Shown here piece after piece: positions 21,371 to 28,790 of a stretch of 64,000 nucleotides of DNA. The stretch is from Agromyces mariniharenae (GTDB lineage Bacteria; Actinomycetota; Actinomycetes; Actinomycetales; Microbacteriaceae), in NCBI RefSeq assembly GCF_008122505.1, contig NZ_VSSB01000002.1, positions 1,054,001 through 1,118,000 of the forward strand, given 5' to 3'. Numbering within the stretch: the stretch's first letter is position 1; the number at the start of each line of letters is the position of its first letter. Both the position numbers and the translations under genes were made by a program. The notes under the pieces are model-generated. The model made no database searches, was not told the origin of the DNA, and was given only the letters and a program-made list of their open reading frames with translations.

Positions 21371-22886
21371 CCGCCTCACCTCCCAGCCTCGCCCTGACCG
21401 CCTCGTGGAATCGCCGGCCTCGGTCGGCGTAGTCGGCGAACTGATCCATGGACGCCGCGGCGGGGGCGAGGAGCACGGTGTCCCCGTCTTCCGCCACGGC
21501 GGCGGCCAGCGCGACCGCCTCGGGCATCACCGTCTCAGTGTCGTCGGTGGCCACCTCGAAGAGGGGCAGCTCGGGCGCGTGTCGCCGGAACGCCGCGACG
21601 AGCGCGGCCCGGTCGACGCCGATCACGATCGCGGCGCGAAGGCGGCTCGCGTGCGCGGCGACGAGCGCGTCCGCGTCGACGCCCTTCAGCAGGCCGCCCA
21701 CGATCCAGACGACGCGGCCGAACGCGCGCAGCGACGCCTCGGCCGCGTGCGGGTTGGTGGCCTTCGAGTCGTCGATCCAGCGGATGCCGCCGGCCACCGC
21801 GACCGTCTCGATGCGGTGCGCGTCGAGCCGGAACTCGCCGAGCGCGTCGTGGATGACGCCCACGGGCACGCCGTAGGAGCGCGCGAGCGCGGACGCGGCG
21901 AGGATGTTCTGCACGACGTGCGGCGCCGAGAGCCCGCGCGGCTCGAGCTCGCCGACGGTGACGATCTCGAGCGCGGCGGTGCGCCGCTCCTCGAGGAACG
22001 CGCGGTCGCAGAGGATGCCCTCGACGACGCCGAAGTCGCTGGGCCCCGGCACGTCGAGGCCGAACCCGATGGCGCGGGCGCCCTCCTCGACGTCGGCCTC
22101 CTCGACCATGTGCATGGTCGCCTCGTCGGCGCGGTTGTAGACGCACGCGACCTTCGTGTTCTCGTAGACCGTGGCCTTCGCCGCCCGGTACGCCTCGGCC
22201 GACCCGTGCCAGTCGAGGTGGTCGTCGGCGATGTTGAGGCACACGCTCGCCCACGGATGCAGCGCCCCTGGCCCGGTCTTCGGGAGGTGGTGGAGCTGGT
22301 AGCTCGACAGCTCGACGACGAGCACGTCGAACCCGCCCGGGTCGCGCACGGCGTCGAGCACGGGCACGCCGATGTTGCCGCACGGCGCCGCGCGGAGGCC
22401 GTTGGCCGCGAGGAAGGTCGCGGTGAGCTGCACGGTCGTGGTCTTGCCGTTCGTGCCGGTCACGAGGATCCACTCGGCGGCGTTCACCTTGTCGCGCACG
22501 CGCCAGGCGAGCTCGATGTCGCCCCACACCGCGACGGCGTTCGCCGACGCCCAGTCGAGCACGGGGTGGTCGGGGTGGAAGCCGGGCGATGCGACGACGA
22601 GCTCGGGCGCGAACGCGACCAGCTCGTCGGGCACCGCGTCGAGGGGATGCCGCACGAGCCGCGCCCCGATGACCTCGAGGATCCGGGCGCGGTCGTCGTC
22701 GACGGCGGGCGCGAGCACCAGCACCTCTGCGCCGAGCTCGGTCAGCGTGTCCGCTACCGCGAACCCGGTGACGCCGAGCCCGAGCACGGCGACGCGCAGG
22801 CCCCGCCAGTCGGCGTTCCAACTCGTGAGGGTCTCGAGCCGGGCGGCGACGCCCGCGGTATCCGAGTCGGTCAACTCTGCAGCCAT
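21330..22886 (-). CDS. murD: UDP-N-acetylmuramoylalanine--D-glutamate ligase
   Basis: MurD adds D-Glu to UDP-MurNAc-L-Ala. The 518-residue protein has the N-terminal UDP-binding motif [14 protein letters not shown], the ATP loop [10 protein letters not shown] (142-151), [12 protein letters not shown], and [13 protein letters not shown] in the C-terminal domain. It is somewhat longer than the usual 440-500 residues. The ATG at 22886 lies 16 bases inside the end of mraY, and the 3' end overlaps ftsW, so the three genes form a nested overlapping set. Confidence 0.97.
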
Positions 22887-23968
22887 TCGAAGTAGAAGCT
22901 GCCGACGCCGGCCGCCACGAACAGGCCGGCGATGATCCAGAACCGCACGACGATCGTGACCTCGGCCCAGCCCTTGAGCTCGAAGTGATGGTGGATGGGA
23001 CTCATGAGGAACACGCGCTTGCCACCCGAGAGCTTGAAGTACGCGCGCTGCACGATGACCGAACCGGTCTCGATGACGAACAGGCCGCCGATGAGGAGCA
23101 GGAGCAGCTCGGTGTGGCTCACGATCGCGAGCGCCGCCAGGGCGCCGCCGAGCGCGAGCGAGCCGGTGTCGCCCATGTAGATGTGCGCCGGGTTGGTGTT
23201 CCACCAGAGGAAGCCGATGAGGCCGCCGACGATCGCGGTGGCCACGATCGCGATGTCGAGCGGATCGCGTACCTCGTAGCAGCGGTACGCGTCGCTCGGG
23301 TTGAGGTTCTCGCTGAAGCACGACTGGTTGAACTGCCAGAAGCCGATGATGACGAACGAGCCGATGGCGAGGATCGACGCGCCGCCCGCCAGGCCGTCGA
23401 GGCCGTCGGTGACGTTCACGCCGTTCGACGCGGCGACCGTGAGGAGGCAGATCCAGATCACGTAGAGGATCACGCCGACGATCGTGCCGAACACCATGAA
23501 GTCGAGCGGCAGGTCGCGGATGAACGAGATGCTCGTGTTCGCCGGCGTGACCGCGTGCTCGTTCGGGAACTGCAGCGCGAGCAGCGCGAACGCCGTGGCC
23601 ACCACGACCTGGCCGAGGATCTTCGCCCAGCCGCCCAGGCCGAGGCTCTGCTTCTTCCGCGTCTTCAGGAAGTCGTCGATGAACCCGACGATGCCGAGTC
23701 CGACCATCATCAGCAGGATGAGCATCGCCGACGCGGTCGGCGGCTCGCCGCTCACGAGGAACGTCGCGCCGAAGTACCCGAACAGGCTGCCCAGGATGAA
23801 GATGATGCCGCCCATCGTGGGCGTGCCGCGCTTGACGTGGTGGCTCTTCGGCCCGTCGTCGCGGATGAACTGGCCCCACCCGATGCGCGTGAATAGCCGG
23901 ATGAACAGCGGCGTGAGGAACAGCGTGAAGGCGAGCGACAACGCCCCGGCGGTCAGCAGTGCTCTCAT
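22871..23968 (-). CDS. mraY: phospho-N-acetylmuramoyl-pentapeptide transferase MraY
   Basis: MraY transfers phospho-MurNAc-pentapeptide to undecaprenyl phosphate, making lipid I. The 365-residue protein has about ten transmembrane helices and the family signatures [36 protein letters not shown] and [12 protein letters not shown]. The ATG at 23968 overlaps the TGA of a 21-codon mini-ORF that itself overlaps the murF stop. That is an unusual link between two genes normally coupled directly. Confidence 0.98.
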
Positions 23969-24030
23969 GCGAACGAATCTCCAGGTCGGCCGCCGAGCAG
24001 GCGGATCGTCAGTGCTGCCCCGCCGCTCAT
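23965..24030 (-). CDS. 21-codon mini-ORF between murF and mraY, derived from the murF 3' end
   Basis: The ATG at 24030 overlaps the murF TGA (ATGA), and its own TGA at 23965-23967 overlaps the mraY ATG (ATGA again). The last residues read [12 protein letters not shown], close to the murF ending [12 protein letters not shown]. At DNA level 34 of 40 bases match between 23965-24004 and 24027-24066 without gaps. The simplest reading is a tandem duplication of the murF tail that kept the stop-start overlap. Whether the peptide does anything beyond carrying ribosomes from murF to mraY is unknown. Confidence 0.55.
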
Positions 24031-24066
24031 GCGAACCATTCTCCCAGTCGGTCGCCGAGGAGGCGG
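23965..24066 (-). repeat. imperfect 40-bp direct duplication of the murF 3' end
   Basis: Copy one (24027-24066) is the true end of murF; copy two (23965-24004) runs up to the start of mraY. They are offset by 62 bases and identical at 34 of 40 positions. Both contain TCATGCGAAC, which supplies the overlapping stop and start codons. Confidence 0.85.
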
Positions 24067-25439
24067 AGACCCGCCGCGTTCGACGATTTCACGAGCACGG
24101 TGTCGCCCGGCCGGGCGATCGAGGTCACGAGGTCGAACGCCTCGTCGGCGCCCTCGACGTAGGCGGACTCGCCGTCCCACGATCCCTCGTTGACGGCCGT
24201 GATGTGCAGCCGCCGGGCGCCCGCTCCGACCACGACGAGCTGCGAGATGCCGAGCCGCACGGCGAGCAGGCCGATGCGGTCGTGCTCCTCGCCCGAGAAC
24301 TCGCCGAGCTCGCTCATCTCGCCGAGCACCGCGATGGTGCGCGTGCCCGGCTCCTGCACCTGCGCCAACGTCTTGAGCGCGGCCGCCATCGAGTCGGGGC
24401 TCGCATTGTAGGCGTCGTTGATGACCGTGACATCGTCGCGGCCGCCCATGACCTCCATGCGCCAGCGCTCGGCCAGCCTGACCGACTCGAGCGCCTCGAC
24501 GATCGCCGGGAGCGGCACGCCGAGCTCGAGCGCGGCGGCGGTGGCCGCGAGCGCGTTCATCACGTGGTGCTCGCCGAGCACCCCGAAGCGCACGCGAGCG
24601 GATGCCCCGCCGGGCGCCGTGATCGTGAACTCGGTGCCGCGCGCGTGCACGACGAGCTCGGTCGCCCGCACGTCGGCGCGTTCGCCGAGCCCGAACCACA
24701 CGACGCGCGCCGCGGTGACGCCGGACATCGAGGCGACCCGAGGGTCGTCGGCATTGAGCACCGCGACCTCGTCGGCCGTGAGCTCGGTCACCATCTCGGA
24801 CTTCGCCCGCACGGTCTGCTCGATGCCGCCGAACTCGCCGGCGTGCGCGAGGCCGACCTTCAGCACGATGCCGATGTCGGGGTGCGCCATGCGGACGAGC
24901 CGCGCGATCTCGCCGACGGCCGACGCGCCCATCTCGGCGACGAGGAACTCGGTGTCGTCGGTGAGCTCGAGCGCGGTGATCGGGCCGCCCACCTCGTTGT
25001 TGAACGACTTGCGCGAGGCGACGGTGTCGCCCTGCGCCGTGAGGATCTCGCGGAGCAGGTTCTTCGTCGTGGTCTTGCCGTTCGAGCCGGTGACGCCGAC
25101 GATCCGCAGTCGTCCGCGCGCCCGCACCCGTCGCACGACCTCGGTCGCGAGCGCGCCGAGCGCGTCGACCGAGTCGGCCACGATGACCTGCGGCACCGGA
25201 AGCTCGAGGGCGTGCTCGACGACGAGCAGCGCCGCGCCCTGCTCGACGGCGGCGGGCGCGAACCGGTGCCCGTCGTCGAACTCGCCGCGCTTGGCGAAGA
25301 ACACGTCGCCGGCGCCGACCTCGCGGGAGTCCGTGGTCACGGCGCCGTCGACGACCGTGTCGGTCGTGGCATCCGTGCCCTCGAGGTGCAGCGTGCCGTC
25401 GACCGCCGAGGCGATCTCGGCCAGGGTCAGGGCGATCAT
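24027..25439 (-). CDS. murF: UDP-MurNAc-tripeptide--D-alanyl-D-alanine ligase
   Basis: MurF adds D-Ala-D-Ala to complete the UDP-MurNAc-pentapeptide. The 470-residue protein shows the ATP loop [11 protein letters not shown] (116-126), the central [13 protein letters not shown] and [10 protein letters not shown] motifs, and [12 protein letters not shown] in the C-terminal domain. Its ATG overlaps the murE TGA (ATGA). The gene ends in [12 protein letters not shown], the segment that has been duplicated downstream. Confidence 0.97.
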
Positions 25440-26983
25440 GCGTCCCAGCCCGCCTCGCGCAATGCCTGCTTCGCGTCGTCTCTGGCTGAGTACGGGATCT
25501 TCACGCCCTTCACCTCGTGGTAGTCCTCGTGGCCCGGTCCGGCGTAGAGGATCGCGTCGCCCTCGCCGGCCAGTGCGACCGCGGCGCGGAACGCCGCCCG
25601 CGGATCGGCGATCTCGTGGATCTCGCGGTCGGGCACGGCCTCGCGTGCGCCGGCGATGAGCGCGGCGCGGATGGCGGCGGGATCCTCCCACCGCGGATGG
25701 AAGTCGGTGATGACGACGACGTCGGCGCCGCGCGCGGCGATGGCGCCCATCTCGGCGCGCTTCGTGGTGTCGCGGTCGCCGTCGGCGCCGAACACCATGA
25801 TGAGGCGGCCGGTCGTGAACCGGCGGATGGCGCCGAGCGTCTGCAGGAACGCGTCGGGGCTGTGCCCGTAGTCGATGTAGACCAGGGGTCCGCGCTCCCG
25901 TGAGATGCGCTCGGCGCGGCCGGGGATGTACGCGTCGACGCCGCCGTCGCGGTCGAGCACGTGCGTGATCTGCTCGAGGTCCCAGCCGGCCTCGACGAGC
26001 ATCACGACCGCGAGGGCGGCGTTCGCGGCCATGTACCAGCCGAGCAGCGGCACGCGGGTCTCGAGTCGCCGGCCGCCCTGGCCCTCGAGCACGAACGACG
26101 TGTGCGTCGCGGTCTCCTCGAGCACCGTGAGGCGCCAGTCGGCGTCGACCTCGGGGTTCGTCGAGAGCGTCGTGACCGGGATGCGCGACTCGGCGACGAG
26201 GCGGCGACCCCAGTCGGAGTCGATCGTCACGACGCCTCGGCGGGAGCGCTCGGGCTGGAACAGCTCGCGCTTCGCCTCGAAGTACAGGTCCATCGACGCG
26301 TAGTCGTCGAGGTGGTCGTGGCTGAGGTTCGTGAAGCCGACGACGTCGAACACGAGCCCGTCGACGCGGTGGCGCGAGAGCGCCTGCGCGGAGACCTCGA
26401 TGCCGACCGCGCGCACGTCGACCTCCTGCATGCGCGCGAGCAGGGCGTGCAGCTCGCTCGCCTCGGGGGTCGTCAGCGAGCTCGTGACCGCCTCGTCGCC
26501 GATGCGGCGCTCGGCCGTGGACGTGAGGCCGGCCACCACGCCGAGCTGGCGCAGGATGCCGTAGAGCAGGTACACGACGCTCGTCTTGCCGTTCGTGCCG
26601 GTCACGGCGAAGAGCGTGGCCGGGTTGTCGGCGGTGCGGTGGATCCATGCGGCCACCTCGCCGAGCGCGGCGCGGGCGTCGGGGGTGACGAGGATCGGCA
26701 GGCCCGACTCGACCGCGAGCTCGGCGCCCGCCTGGTCCGTGAGCACGGCGACGGCGCCGCCGTCGCGGGCGGCCCCGGCGAACGAGGCGCCGTGGGCGTT
26801 GCGGCCGGGCACCCCGACGTACAGGTCGCCGGGGCGGACGGCCGCGGAGTTGAGCACGACGCCGGTGACCTCGAGGTCGTCGATGTCGCCGCGCACGTCG
26901 AGGTCGAACGTCTCGGCGAGGCCGTGCAGCGATCGAGGGCTCGGATGCTGCGGCCGGAGGGCCGTTGGAGGCGATCCGGTCAC
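25436..26983 (-). CDS. murE: UDP-MurNAc-dipeptide--diamino-acid ligase MurE, atypical specificity motif
   Basis: MurE adds the third stem residue. The 515-residue protein has the ATP loop TGTNGKTSV (128-136), TTPEASELH, EVSAQALSRHRV and GADGDRDTTKRAEMG. Where E. coli and mycobacteria have DNPR (meso-DAP binding) it reads D-F-H-P-R in TDFHPRWEDP (426-435): the Arg is kept but Asp-Asn is Phe-His. Microbacteriaceae use cross-linkage type B walls with diaminobutyrate, ornithine, lysine or homoserine at position 3, so a non-DAP substrate is likely, though not provable here. The GTG start lies 13 bases after ftsI. Confidence 0.94.
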   Translation of the reverse strand: MTGSPPTALRPQHPSPRSLHGLAETFDLDVRGDIDDLEVTGVVLNSAAVRPGDLYVGVPGRNAHGASFAGAARDGGAVAVLTDQAGAELAVESGLPILVTPDARAALGEVAAWIHRTADNPATLFAVTGTNGKTSVVYLLYGILRQLGVVAGLTSTAERRIGDEAVTSSLTTPEASELHALLARMQEVDVRAVGIEVSAQALSRHRVDGLVFDVVGFTNLSHDHLDDYASMDLYFEAKRELFQPERSRRGVVTIDSDWGRRLVAESRIPVTTLSTNPEVDADWRLTVLEETATHTSFVLEGQGGRRLETRVPLLGWYMAANAALAVVMLVEAGWDLEQITHVLDRDGGVDAYIPGRAERISRERGPLVYIDYGHSPDAFLQTLGAIRRFTTGRLIMVFGADGDRDTTKRAEMGAIAARGADVVVITDFHPRWEDPAAIRAALIAGAREAVPDREIHEIADPRAAFRAAVALAGEGDAILYAGPGHEDYHEVKGVKIPYSARDDAKQALREAGWDA

Positions 26984-26996
26984 GAACCCAACTTTC

Positions 26997-28790
26997 TCAC
27001 CAGGTGGCTGGCAGCTCGGGCGCCGCGGCGCCGGATGGAACGGTCCGATACTTCTTCAGCACCTGGCTCATCACCTGTTGGAAGACGGGAGCGGATGCGG
27101 CGGACGAGTTCATCTTAACGGGATTCATGATGCTCACCGAAACGACGAACTGCGGATCGTCGGCCGGCGCGAACCCCGAGACCGACACGAGGTAGCCGCT
27201 CAGGTAGCCGCCGTTCCCGTCGGGGACCTGCGCCGTGCCCGTCTTCGCGGCGACCCGGTAGCCCGGGATCTCCCACTTGTCGGCGAGCCAGCCCTCGAGG
27301 TACACGCGCTCCAGCATCGCGCTCGTCTGCTGCGCCGCCGACGCCGAGATCACGGGCGTGCCCGACGACTGCGCCGGGGTCTCGTCGCCGCATCCGTCGA
27401 CGAGTCGCACCGGCATCCGCACGCCGCCGTTGGCGATGGTCTGGTAGACGCTCGCGATCTGCACGGCCGTCGTCGTGAGCCCCTGCCCGAACATGGTCGC
27501 GTACTTGGTCTGGTTGTCCCAGCCCTCGGGCCCGCCGTGCAGGTCGCCGGGCTCCTCGCCGGGGAACCCGACCTCGGTGCGCTCCCCCAGGCCGAACGCG
27601 AGCATGTCGTCGTAGCGCTCCTGGTCGCTCAGCCGCTCGCCGAACTGCGACATGCCGGTGTTCGACGACTCGATGAGCACGCCCGTGAGCGTCAGCGGCT
27701 CGTCGCCGTGGAACGAGCTGTCGTTGACGTTCGCGCCGTTCGGCGGCAGGTAGCGGTACGGAGCGATGATCTGGCTGACCGGATCGGCCTTGCCGGCGTC
27801 GATGACGGATGCCGCGGTGAGCGCCTTGAACGTCGAGCCGGGCTCGAACGGCGCGGTGAACGCCCGCGAGCCGCGGTTCCCGGAGTCCGTCGCCGAGGGC
27901 GCGTTCGGGTCGACCGTCGGGACGTCGGCGACGGCGAGCAGACGGCCGGTCTTCGCCTCCATGACGGTCACGGTGGCCCAGTCGGCGCCGACGGCCTGCA
28001 CCTGCGCCTCCGCGATCCGCTGCACCATCCACTGCAGGTCGGAGTCGATGGTGAGCCTCAGCGTGCCGCCGTCGTGCGCCTGCTCGTGCACGACCTCCGT
28101 GCCCGGGATCTGCACCCAGTCCTCGAGGCTGTGCAGGTAGCTGTACTCCCCGTCCTGCCCCGCGAGGCATTCGTCCTCCGAGAGCTCGACGCCCGCGAGG
28201 GCGTCGCCGTCGGAGCCCACGAAGCCGAGCAGGTTGCCCGCCACCGCGCCGTTCGGGTAGTAGCGACTGGGGTGCTCCCACGGCACGACCCACGGGATGT
28301 CGAGCTCCTTCACGCGCTCGTACGTCTCGGTGTCGACGAGCTTGGCCACGTACGCGAAGTCCGACTGGGCGTTCTCGGCGAGCGAGTCGGCGATGACCTG
28401 CTGCACCTGCTCGCCGGTGAGGCCGATGACCGCCCCGAGCTCGGCGGCGGACTGCTCGAGCGGCACGTCGACCGGCACGGTCTTCGACGGATCCTGCGGA
28501 TCGGGCTCCTCGCGCGTGATGGGGCCGGCGTTCGCGTTCTTGGGCGACACCGCGATGTCGTAGCGCATCACGGTGTCGGCGAGCACGATGCCGTTCCGGT
28601 CGACGATGTCGCCGCGCGAGCCGTAGACGGTGACCGACGTCGAGCGCCGGCCCTCGGCCTCCTCGCTGAGCTCGGCAGCGCGCACGACCTGGAGGTCGAC
28701 GAGCCGCACCACGAACACGCCGACGAGCGCGACCAGCACGACCGCGGCGAGGAGGATTCGGCGCATCGGGTGGCGGCTGGTGCCGTTCAT
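26997..28790 (-). CDS. ftsI: septal penicillin-binding protein FtsI (class B transpeptidase)
   Basis: FtsI (PBP2b/PBP3) cross-links septal peptidoglycan with FtsW. The 597-residue protein has a single N-terminal anchor (10-30) and a dimerisation/pedestal domain (about 55-240). The transpeptidase motifs are SxxK in PGSTFK (Ser319), SSN (375-377) and KTG (516-518). There is no C-terminal PASTA domain. The ATG at 28790 follows the ftsL stop by 20 bases. Order ftsL-ftsI-murE is canonical. Confidence 0.97.
   Translation of the reverse strand: MNGTSRHPMRRILLAAVVLVALVGVFVVRLVDLQVVRAAELSEEAEGRRSTSVTVYGSRGDIVDRNGIVLADTVMRYDIAVSPKNANAGPITREEPDPQDPSKTVPVDVPLEQSAAELGAVIGLTGEQVQQVIADSLAENAQSDFAYVAKLVDTETYERVKELDIPWVVPWEHPSRYYPNGAVAGNLLGFVGSDGDALAGVELSEDECLAGQDGEYSYLHSLEDWVQIPGTEVVHEQAHDGGTLRLTIDSDLQWMVQRIAEAQVQAVGADWATVTVMEAKTGRLLAVADVPTVDPNAPSATDSGNRGSRAFTAPFEPGSTFKALTAASVIDAGKADPVSQIIAPYRYLPPNGANVNDSSFHGDEPLTLTGVLIESSNTGMSQFGERLSDQERYDDMLAFGLGERTEVGFPGEEPGDLHGGPEGWDNQTKYATMFGQGLTTTAVQIASVYQTIANGGVRMPVRLVDGCGDETPAQSSGTPVISASAAQQTSAMLERVYLEGWLADKWEIPGYRVAAKTGTAQVPDGNGGYLSGYLVSVSGFAPADDPQFVVSVSIMNPVKMNSSAASAPVFQQVMSQVLKKYRTVPSGAAAPELPATW

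What the first reader, a model, noticed from the sequence alone, without database searches (positions are those of the whole stretch)
23965..24066. Duplicated murF tail forms a 21-codon mini-ORF chained by ATGA overlaps between murF and mraY
The last 40 bases of murF are repeated 62 bases downstream (34 of 40 identical), ending exactly at the mraY start. Between the copies lies an open frame whose ATG overlaps the murF stop and whose TGA overlaps the mraY start, and whose C-terminus ([12 protein letters not shown]) mimics the MurF end ([12 protein letters not shown]). In most genomes murF and mraY are coupled directly. Here a duplication seems to have inserted a coupling peptide without breaking the ribosome relay, in an essential pathway. 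It could tune MraY relative to MurF or encode a tiny MurF-tail mimic.
Basis: partly seen in the sequence, partly recalled or inferred. Interest (0 to 1): 0.72.

Follow-up and report, generated by a model that had tools for sequence, protein, structure and literature searches.

The report
Bridging mini-gene between two wall genes
In some soil bacteria of the genus Agromyces the end of one cell-wall gene has been copied in front of the next one, and each copy forms a tiny reading frame that appears to hand ribosomes on to the next gene, much like a known repeat in mycobacteria but made locally from the gene's own tail.

Summary
In this Agromyces genome the last ~42 bases of murF recur 62 bases downstream, and a 21-codon ORF between them overlaps the murF stop and the mraY start by ATGA. 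It is not unique: 15 of 60 genomes of the genus carry such an insert (1-4 units of 38-104 nt); the other 45 have a direct 4-nt overlap. None of 86 other Microbacteriaceae genomes read has one. In all 15, murF stop and mraY start are joined by an unbroken chain of RTGA-overlapping mini-ORFs or one fused ORF, and GGAG is kept before mraY. The peptide evolves close to neutrally, so a 'MurF-tail mimic' is unlikely. Best reading: a local minisatellite, made by duplicating the murF-tail/mraY-start module, tolerated because each unit is a translatable bridge that preserves termination-reinitiation coupling. It works like the mycobacterial MIRU (small ORF coupled at -4 nt), but no dispersed copies were seen and it is built from murF itself. 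Whether copy number tunes MraY is untested. The frame evidence rests on indel phase in a few lineages; stop avoidance alone is weak.

The parts
24027..25439 (-). murF (470 aa, ends [12 protein letters not shown]); its start overlaps the murE stop by ATGA
   Evidence: gene name is recalled from sequence and position in the dcw cluster
24026..24067 (-). repeat copy 1: 3' end of murF with its stop and the mini-ORF start
24041..24045 (-). GGGAG, Shine-Dalgarno-like motif inside the murF tail, ahead of the mini-ORF start
   Evidence: read; GGAG stands at this place ahead of mraY in 44 of 44 non-insert genomes
23965..24030 (-). 21-codon mini-[24 protein letters not shown] with its stop; ATGA overlap with the murF stop (24030-24027) and with the mraY start (23968-23965)
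23964..24005 (-). repeat copy 2: diverged murF-tail copy, 36 of 42 identical to copy 1, ending at the mraY start
23979..23982 (-). GGAG, Shine-Dalgarno-like motif ahead of mraY inside the mini-ORF; GGAG kept at -20 to -7 in 15 of 15 insert genomes
22871..23968 (-). mraY (365 aa); start codon overlapped by the mini-ORF stop

Best explanation
The mini-ORF is a translational bridge made by a local tandem duplication of the murF-tail/mraY-start module. Each unit carries what mraY needs (an open stretch in the murF frame, a GGAG motif, an RTGA stop/start overlap), so adding a unit whose length leaves remainder 2 on division by 3 adds one more stop-restart step instead of an untranslated gap. Ribosomes ending murF restart on the mini-ORF, and those ending the mini-ORF restart on mraY. 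Selection acts on phase, overlap and ribosome-binding motif; the peptide is a by-product. The array behaves as a minisatellite: it expands, can collapse back to the direct 4-nt overlap, and drifts in sequence. Shown: duplication, architecture, recurrence in 15 of 60 genomes, preserved bridge, preserved GGAG, loose peptide. Inferred: that the bridge is translated, that losing coupling is what selection removes, and that absences are often losses. Not shown: any effect on MraY amount.
For: 15 of 60 genomes of the genus have inserts and all 15 are bridged: single ORFs of 21-35 codons, chains of 2 (L099, L105, L122) or 4 (L089, 4 x 62 nt), or fused ORFs of 52 and 78 codons where non-final units are 78 nt (L104, L100). 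Length differences from 62 or 77 nt are +6 (L099), -24 (L105), +27 (L094) and -12 (L141), plus +1 in non-final units of L104 and L100, where it fuses ORFs rather than breaks the bridge (family assignment by eye). Simulated 1-nt changes break the bridge at about 71% (deletions) and 61% (insertions) of positions over all inserts, and at 90-100% of positions in single-unit inserts except L141. GGAG lies between -20 and -7 of mraY in 15 of 15 while the encoded C-terminus varies. Peptide body pN/pS 0.54 and 1.31. The neighbouring murE-murF junction is -4 nt in 43 of 43 readable loci (19 of 62 not readable). In reporter work an intergenic distance of 38 nt cut reinitiation by 80-90% in two E. coli pairs and abolished it in a third (PMC10666635; abstract and E. 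coli section read), so 58-244 nt of untranslated insert would be expected to uncouple the genes. No unusual RNA fold (z +1.64) and no sigma-70-like promoter or terminator-like site at the window insert.
Against: The 15 genomes are not independent; presence/absence needs at least 9 changes on a quick murF+mraY tree, and I count only about 6-8 phase-informative events, giving a rough chance near 1 in 1000 that all were harmless (my estimate, not a formal test). At their given lengths, shuffled inserts are bridged 16-83% of the time, and only 1-6% of single substitutions would break a bridge, so an open frame alone proves little. mraY keeps its own GGAG and start and might initiate alone. For the MIRU array at senX3-regX3 promoter activity has been reported (PMC4213456, passages); I tested that only by a sigma-70 consensus scan. 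No ribosome profiling or reporter data here.
Confidence: 0.72

Rival explanations
1. Purely neutral minisatellite: mraY initiates on its own ribosome-binding site, coupling to murF is irrelevant, and the open chain is an accident of copying an open murF tail.
For: Inserts are absent from 45 of 60 genomes and from the nearest tree neighbour of the window; GGAG and start are intact ahead of mraY; shuffled inserts of the same length are often open.
Against: Phase is right in 15 of 15 despite length changes of +6, -24, +27, -12; the only +1 changes sit in non-final units where they do no harm; murE-murF is never interrupted in the 43 loci readable.
Confidence: 0.18
2. The repeat number is a selected rheostat: each extra stop-restart step (or extra ribosome loading at its GGAG) changes MraY output relative to MurF.
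For: Copy number runs from 0 to 4 across the genus, with three identical frames in L089 pointing to recent expansion; synthetic short ORFs with an internal ribosome-binding site raised translation up to 20-fold in E. coli (PMC13255528; abstract, introduction and discussion read).
Against: No expression data; no correlation with any trait was tested; absence in most species shows that no particular number is required. The synthetic design places its binding site 4 nt before the start, unlike here.
Confidence: 0.2
3. The mini-ORF encodes a functional peptide that imitates the MurF C-terminus.
For: DRLGEWFA is kept in the last unit of L102, L109, L111 and L118 and RLGEWFA in L089 and L093; pN/pS in the 77-nt family is below 1 (0.48 whole, 0.54 body).
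Against: Those residues coincide with the GGAG motif and the overlap; where they change, GGAG stays and the peptide does not. Body pN/pS is 1.31 in the 62-nt family, to which the window belongs. The 52-aa fused form of L104 had 34 candidates and none at E <= 0.001 in the protein database.
Confidence: 0.03
4. A mobile MIRU-like element inserted at the RTGA site.
For: Same layout as MIRUs as described in a 2025 review (ORF coupled at -4 nt; PMC12548453, passage); MIRU lengths of 77 and 53 bp at senX3-regX3 (PMC4213456, passage) share remainder 2 on division by 3 with most units here.
Against: Two searches of the 60 genomes with the L104 and L089 arrays gave matches above 45 bits only at murF-mraY; elsewhere nothing exceeded 42.8 bits (that one at the second mraY of G042) (only the 13-14 best candidates per genome were scored). 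The 3' 41 nt of the L089 unit are identical to its murF tail.
Confidence: 0.05

Closest known systems
Mycobacterial interspersed repetitive units (MIRU), e.g. the senX3-regX3 array (Supply et al. 1997; that paper not seen, known from passages in PMC12548453 and PMC4213456 and from recall)
   Same: Short tandem units inside an operon, each with a small ORF coupled to the neighbouring gene by a 4-nt stop/start overlap; copy number varies; lengths 77 and 53 also leave remainder 2 on division by 3.
   Different: MIRUs are dispersed and appear mobile; this array was seen at one junction only, in one genus, and its unit copies the upstream gene's own 3' end and the downstream gene's start. Promoter activity reported for the senX3-regX3 array was not tested here beyond a consensus scan.
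Termination-reinitiation at overlapping gene pairs (PMC6728339, listing only; PMC10666635, abstract and one results section)
   Same: Relies on short overlaps, -4 nt being the commonest.
   Different: Here a non-gene is inserted as an extra link, up to four in series, between two essential genes.
'Nonsense' short ORF upstream of a target gene, a synthetic part (PMC13255528; abstract, introduction, discussion)
   Same: Short ORF of no coding value with the target's ribosome-binding site inside it next to its stop.
   Different: Natural, between two genes of an operon, derived by duplication and variable in copy number; motif spacing differs.
Two-codon minigene within the axe-txe operon (PMC8708949, abstract)
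   Same: Mini-ORF in an operon, reported to act in cis on the downstream gene.
   Different: Two codons; in the abstract nothing on duplication or an RTGA chain.

Membership tests
MIRU | small ORF whose ends overlap the neighbouring genes at -4 nt stop/start sites | tested here: met
   15 of 15 insert genomes
MIRU | variable tandem copy number | tested here: met
   1 to 4 units between species; strain-level variation not examined
MIRU | dispersed at many loci, apparently mobile | tested here: not met
   two arrays searched in 60 genomes; no match above 45 bits away from murF-mraY; only the 13-14 best candidates per genome scored
MIRU | sequence similarity to mycobacterial MIRU units | not tested
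   no MIRU sequence was fetched (it would come from a listed pathogen)
translationally coupled overlapping gene pair | RTGA overlap with a ribosome-binding motif ahead of the second start | tested here: met
translationally coupled overlapping gene pair | downstream output depends on upstream translation | not testable with these tools
   needs reporters or ribosome profiling
functional small protein | amino-acid sequence conserved (pN/pS well below 1) | tested here: inconclusive
   body pooled pN/pS 1.31 in the window's 62-nt family (5 pairs), 0.54 in the 77-nt family (6 pairs); few and overlapping pairs
structured RNA element | fold more stable than shuffles | tested here: not met
   z +1.64, 193 of 200 shuffles fold at least as well; window only

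The most novel reading that the evidence does not exclude
An operon-internal minisatellite that is self-made from a stop/start overlap and acts as an evolvable translation dial: because each unit re-creates its own stop-restart site, copies can be gained and lost without uncoupling two essential genes, and the number of relay steps sets MraY relative to MurF. MIRU-like repeats could then arise from local duplication of an overlap module rather than by transposition.
Probability: 0.2. Interest if true: 0.72.

Novelty: new variant of a known kind. Interest (0 to 1): 0.5.

Why it matters
It is a natural experiment on translational coupling: related genomes with 0, 1, 2 or 4 extra stop-restart steps (or fused bridges) between the same two essential genes. 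One can ask how much coupling costs per step, whether coupling at murF-mraY is really under selection, and how MIRU-type coupling repeats can originate without a mobile element. I found no description of it in the ten paper searches made; these cover open-access PMC papers only, and several listings were capped (for example 10 of 166 papers).

Tried and rejected
MurF-mimic peptide: set aside on pN/pS in the window's family and on peptide divergence with a kept GGAG. Mobile element: set aside after genus-wide DNA searches. RNA structure, promoter or terminator: nothing found at the window insert. Stop-codon avoidance as proof: dropped as weak; 0 internal stops in 575 chain codons against 25 in 1066 codons of the other two frames, but shuffles are often open and few substitutions would break a bridge. 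Scans of 864 kb for other chained mini-ORFs with a crude gene caller: 8 candidates beside 9 direct overlaps and 12 beside 43 with looser settings; both missed the murF case itself, so they are not used as a rate; a tail-copy scan gave 6 weak hits and missed murF too, and was replaced. Protein search with the 52-aa fused ORF of L104: 34 candidates, none at E <= 0.001. Plasmid search: one partial match in a Microbacterium record, not followed. Passages of PMC3914561 and PMC3635867 were looked at for MIRU ORFs without use.

Rows dropped before counts: L024, L033, L116, L121 and L139 had no murF match and L063 has masked bases in murF; G032 was then read from L145. In one search, which includes three named loci beside the unnamed ones, 19 of 62 gave no murE-murF value; the mraY-murD column (32 at -16, 1 at -4, 5 spurious near -2500, 24 unread) was not used as a control. 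In one search, L224 had no murF match and L151 is a genome of the window's genus already counted. Of 147 genomes of other genera, 87 were fetched and 86 read.

Full report
What is there. The window lies in a genome of the genus Agromyces (G000:C2:1054001-1118000). The dcw cluster is on the minus strand. murF ends at 24027. A 21-codon ORF starts at 24030, overlapping the murF stop (ATGA, 24030-24027), and stops inside the mraY start (ATGA, 23968-23965). Two 42-nt copies 62 nt apart, 36 of 42 identical, hold the murF tail and the mraY approach. Among 1857 RTGA-type stops after long open frames in 864 kb, the murF tail copy is the clear outlier (34 of 40; the only other hit sits at the threshold, 28 of 40).

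Relatives. I read the murF-mraY junction in the 60 genomes of the genus that one search returned (59; G032 from its contig end). 45 have the direct 4-nt RTGA overlap and 15, the window included, have an insert. Two named records show it as well: A. cerinus DSM 8595 (L074) and Agromyces sp. Root81 (L005); A. kandeliae (L003) does not. These may be the same genomes as some unnamed ones and are not added to the count. Outside the genus no insert was seen: 86 of 86 other Microbacteriaceae genomes with a readable junction lie at -16 to 0 nt (87 fetched of 147), and 74 readable non-Agromyces loci lie between -7 and +3; the two sets may overlap.

Architecture. The inserts are arrays of units of 38, 62, 65, 68, 77, 78 or 104 nt. 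L089 has four 62-nt units, the first three identical; L099, L105 and L122 have two; L104 (78+77) and L100 (78+78+77) read as single fused ORFs of 52 and 78 codons; the others have one. In 15 of 15 the path from murF stop to mraY start is open and joined by RTGA. By eye there are two families, ATGAGCGG... or similar (window, L089, L093, L099, L105) and GTGAGC... (L094, L100, L102, L104, L109, L111, L114, L118, L122, L141). The clearly murF-derived part is the last ~40 nt; upstream of it the unit aligns only partly to murF.

History. On a quick murF+mraY tree, presence needs at least 9 changes; the window's nearest row, L085, lacks the insert (SH-aLRT 89 for that pair, not starred). Since an array of direct repeats can collapse to the direct overlap, I read this as gain with repeated loss, but the tree cannot separate gain from loss and recombination was not tested.

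What is conserved. GGAG is present between -20 and -7 of mraY in 15 of 15 insert genomes and 44 of 44 others, while neighbouring positions and the encoded residues vary in the insert genomes; some other positions (-6, -3, -2) are also invariant in the 15. The peptide body has pooled pN/pS 0.54 (6 pairs of the 77-nt family) and 1.31 (5 pairs of the 62-nt family); murF+mraY in the same pairs have pN 0.010-0.096 against pS 0.13-0.37. These are few, overlapping pairs, and the 77-nt value does not exclude mild constraint. Phase is conserved: length changes of +6, -24, +27 and -12, and +1 only in non-final units. Single-base indels in a script break the bridge at about 71% (deletions) and 61% (insertions) of positions. 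If two origins and four length changes each had a one-in-three chance and the two +1 changes two in three, all harmless has a chance of about 6 in 10000; this rests on my count of events. By contrast the absence of stops (0 in 575 codons; 25 in 1066 in the other frames) is weak evidence, since 94-99% of substitutions leave a bridge intact and length-preserving shuffles are bridged 16-83% of the time.

Specificity. The murE-murF junction is -4 nt in 43 of 43 loci where it could be read (19 of 62 could not). In searches of the 60 genomes with the L104 and L089 arrays, all matches above 45 bits fall at murF-mraY; elsewhere the best are 42.8 bits (second mraY copy of G042) and 41.9 bits or less. 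Only the 13-14 best candidates per genome were scored there.

How it works. Reporter work shows that reinitiation falls steeply with distance (PMC10666635: abstract, and E. coli section). An untranslated insert of 58-244 nt would therefore be expected to uncouple mraY from murF, whereas a chain of ORFs with 4-nt overlaps would not. The economical explanation is duplication of an overlap module that carries its own ribosome-binding motif and overlap and so can be inserted, multiplied and removed without cutting the relay. Translation of the mini-ORF, and a fitness cost of uncoupling, are inferred.

Comparison. A 2025 review describes MIRUs as apparently mobile repeats that insert at start codons so that an ORF within them is coupled at -4 nt, likely with minimal impact on expression (PMC12548453, passage). 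The senX3-regX3 array has 77-bp and 53-bp units, and promoter activity has been reported there (PMC4213456, passages). The Agromyces array works like that in its layout, but it fails the dispersal criterion as tested and comes from the flanking gene itself, so I do not file it as a MIRU. A synthetic parallel is the non-coding short ORF with an internal ribosome-binding site (PMC13255528).

Verdict. Real and recurrent; most likely a coupling-preserving bridge with an unimportant peptide; a locally born variant of a known kind. Tuning of MraY remains an open and testable possibility.

Noticed in passing
window 26980-27000 (minus): The 13-nt pbpB-murE gap is also bridged by a 6-codon frame (VRKLGS) with GTGA overlaps on both sides; its 13 nt are identical in 30 of 30 Agromyces loci read (30 of the 60 genomes). 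The sequence is not seen, by eye, in the 25 junctions of other genera printed (29 loci, 4 without pbpB). Possibly just a conserved ribosome-binding stretch.
   Followed up: partly
L149:6067-7170, L150:2481-3572, L146:2581-2661: G042 and G033 have a second mraY away from murF, and contig ends suggest one in G032; in L146 its approach carries the same CGACCGACTGGGAGAATG stretch as the murF tail, without murF.
   Followed up: partly
G015, G030, G038, G056, G040: In these genomes of the genus the only listed full-length murE match is 52-54% identical and lies apart from mraY, as if the cluster's murE had been replaced or lost.
   Followed up: no
G031:C1:1385038-1386636 and G017:C72:71353-72897: murE matches fall in two pieces within one open frame, suggesting an in-frame insertion near residue 277.
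   Followed up: no
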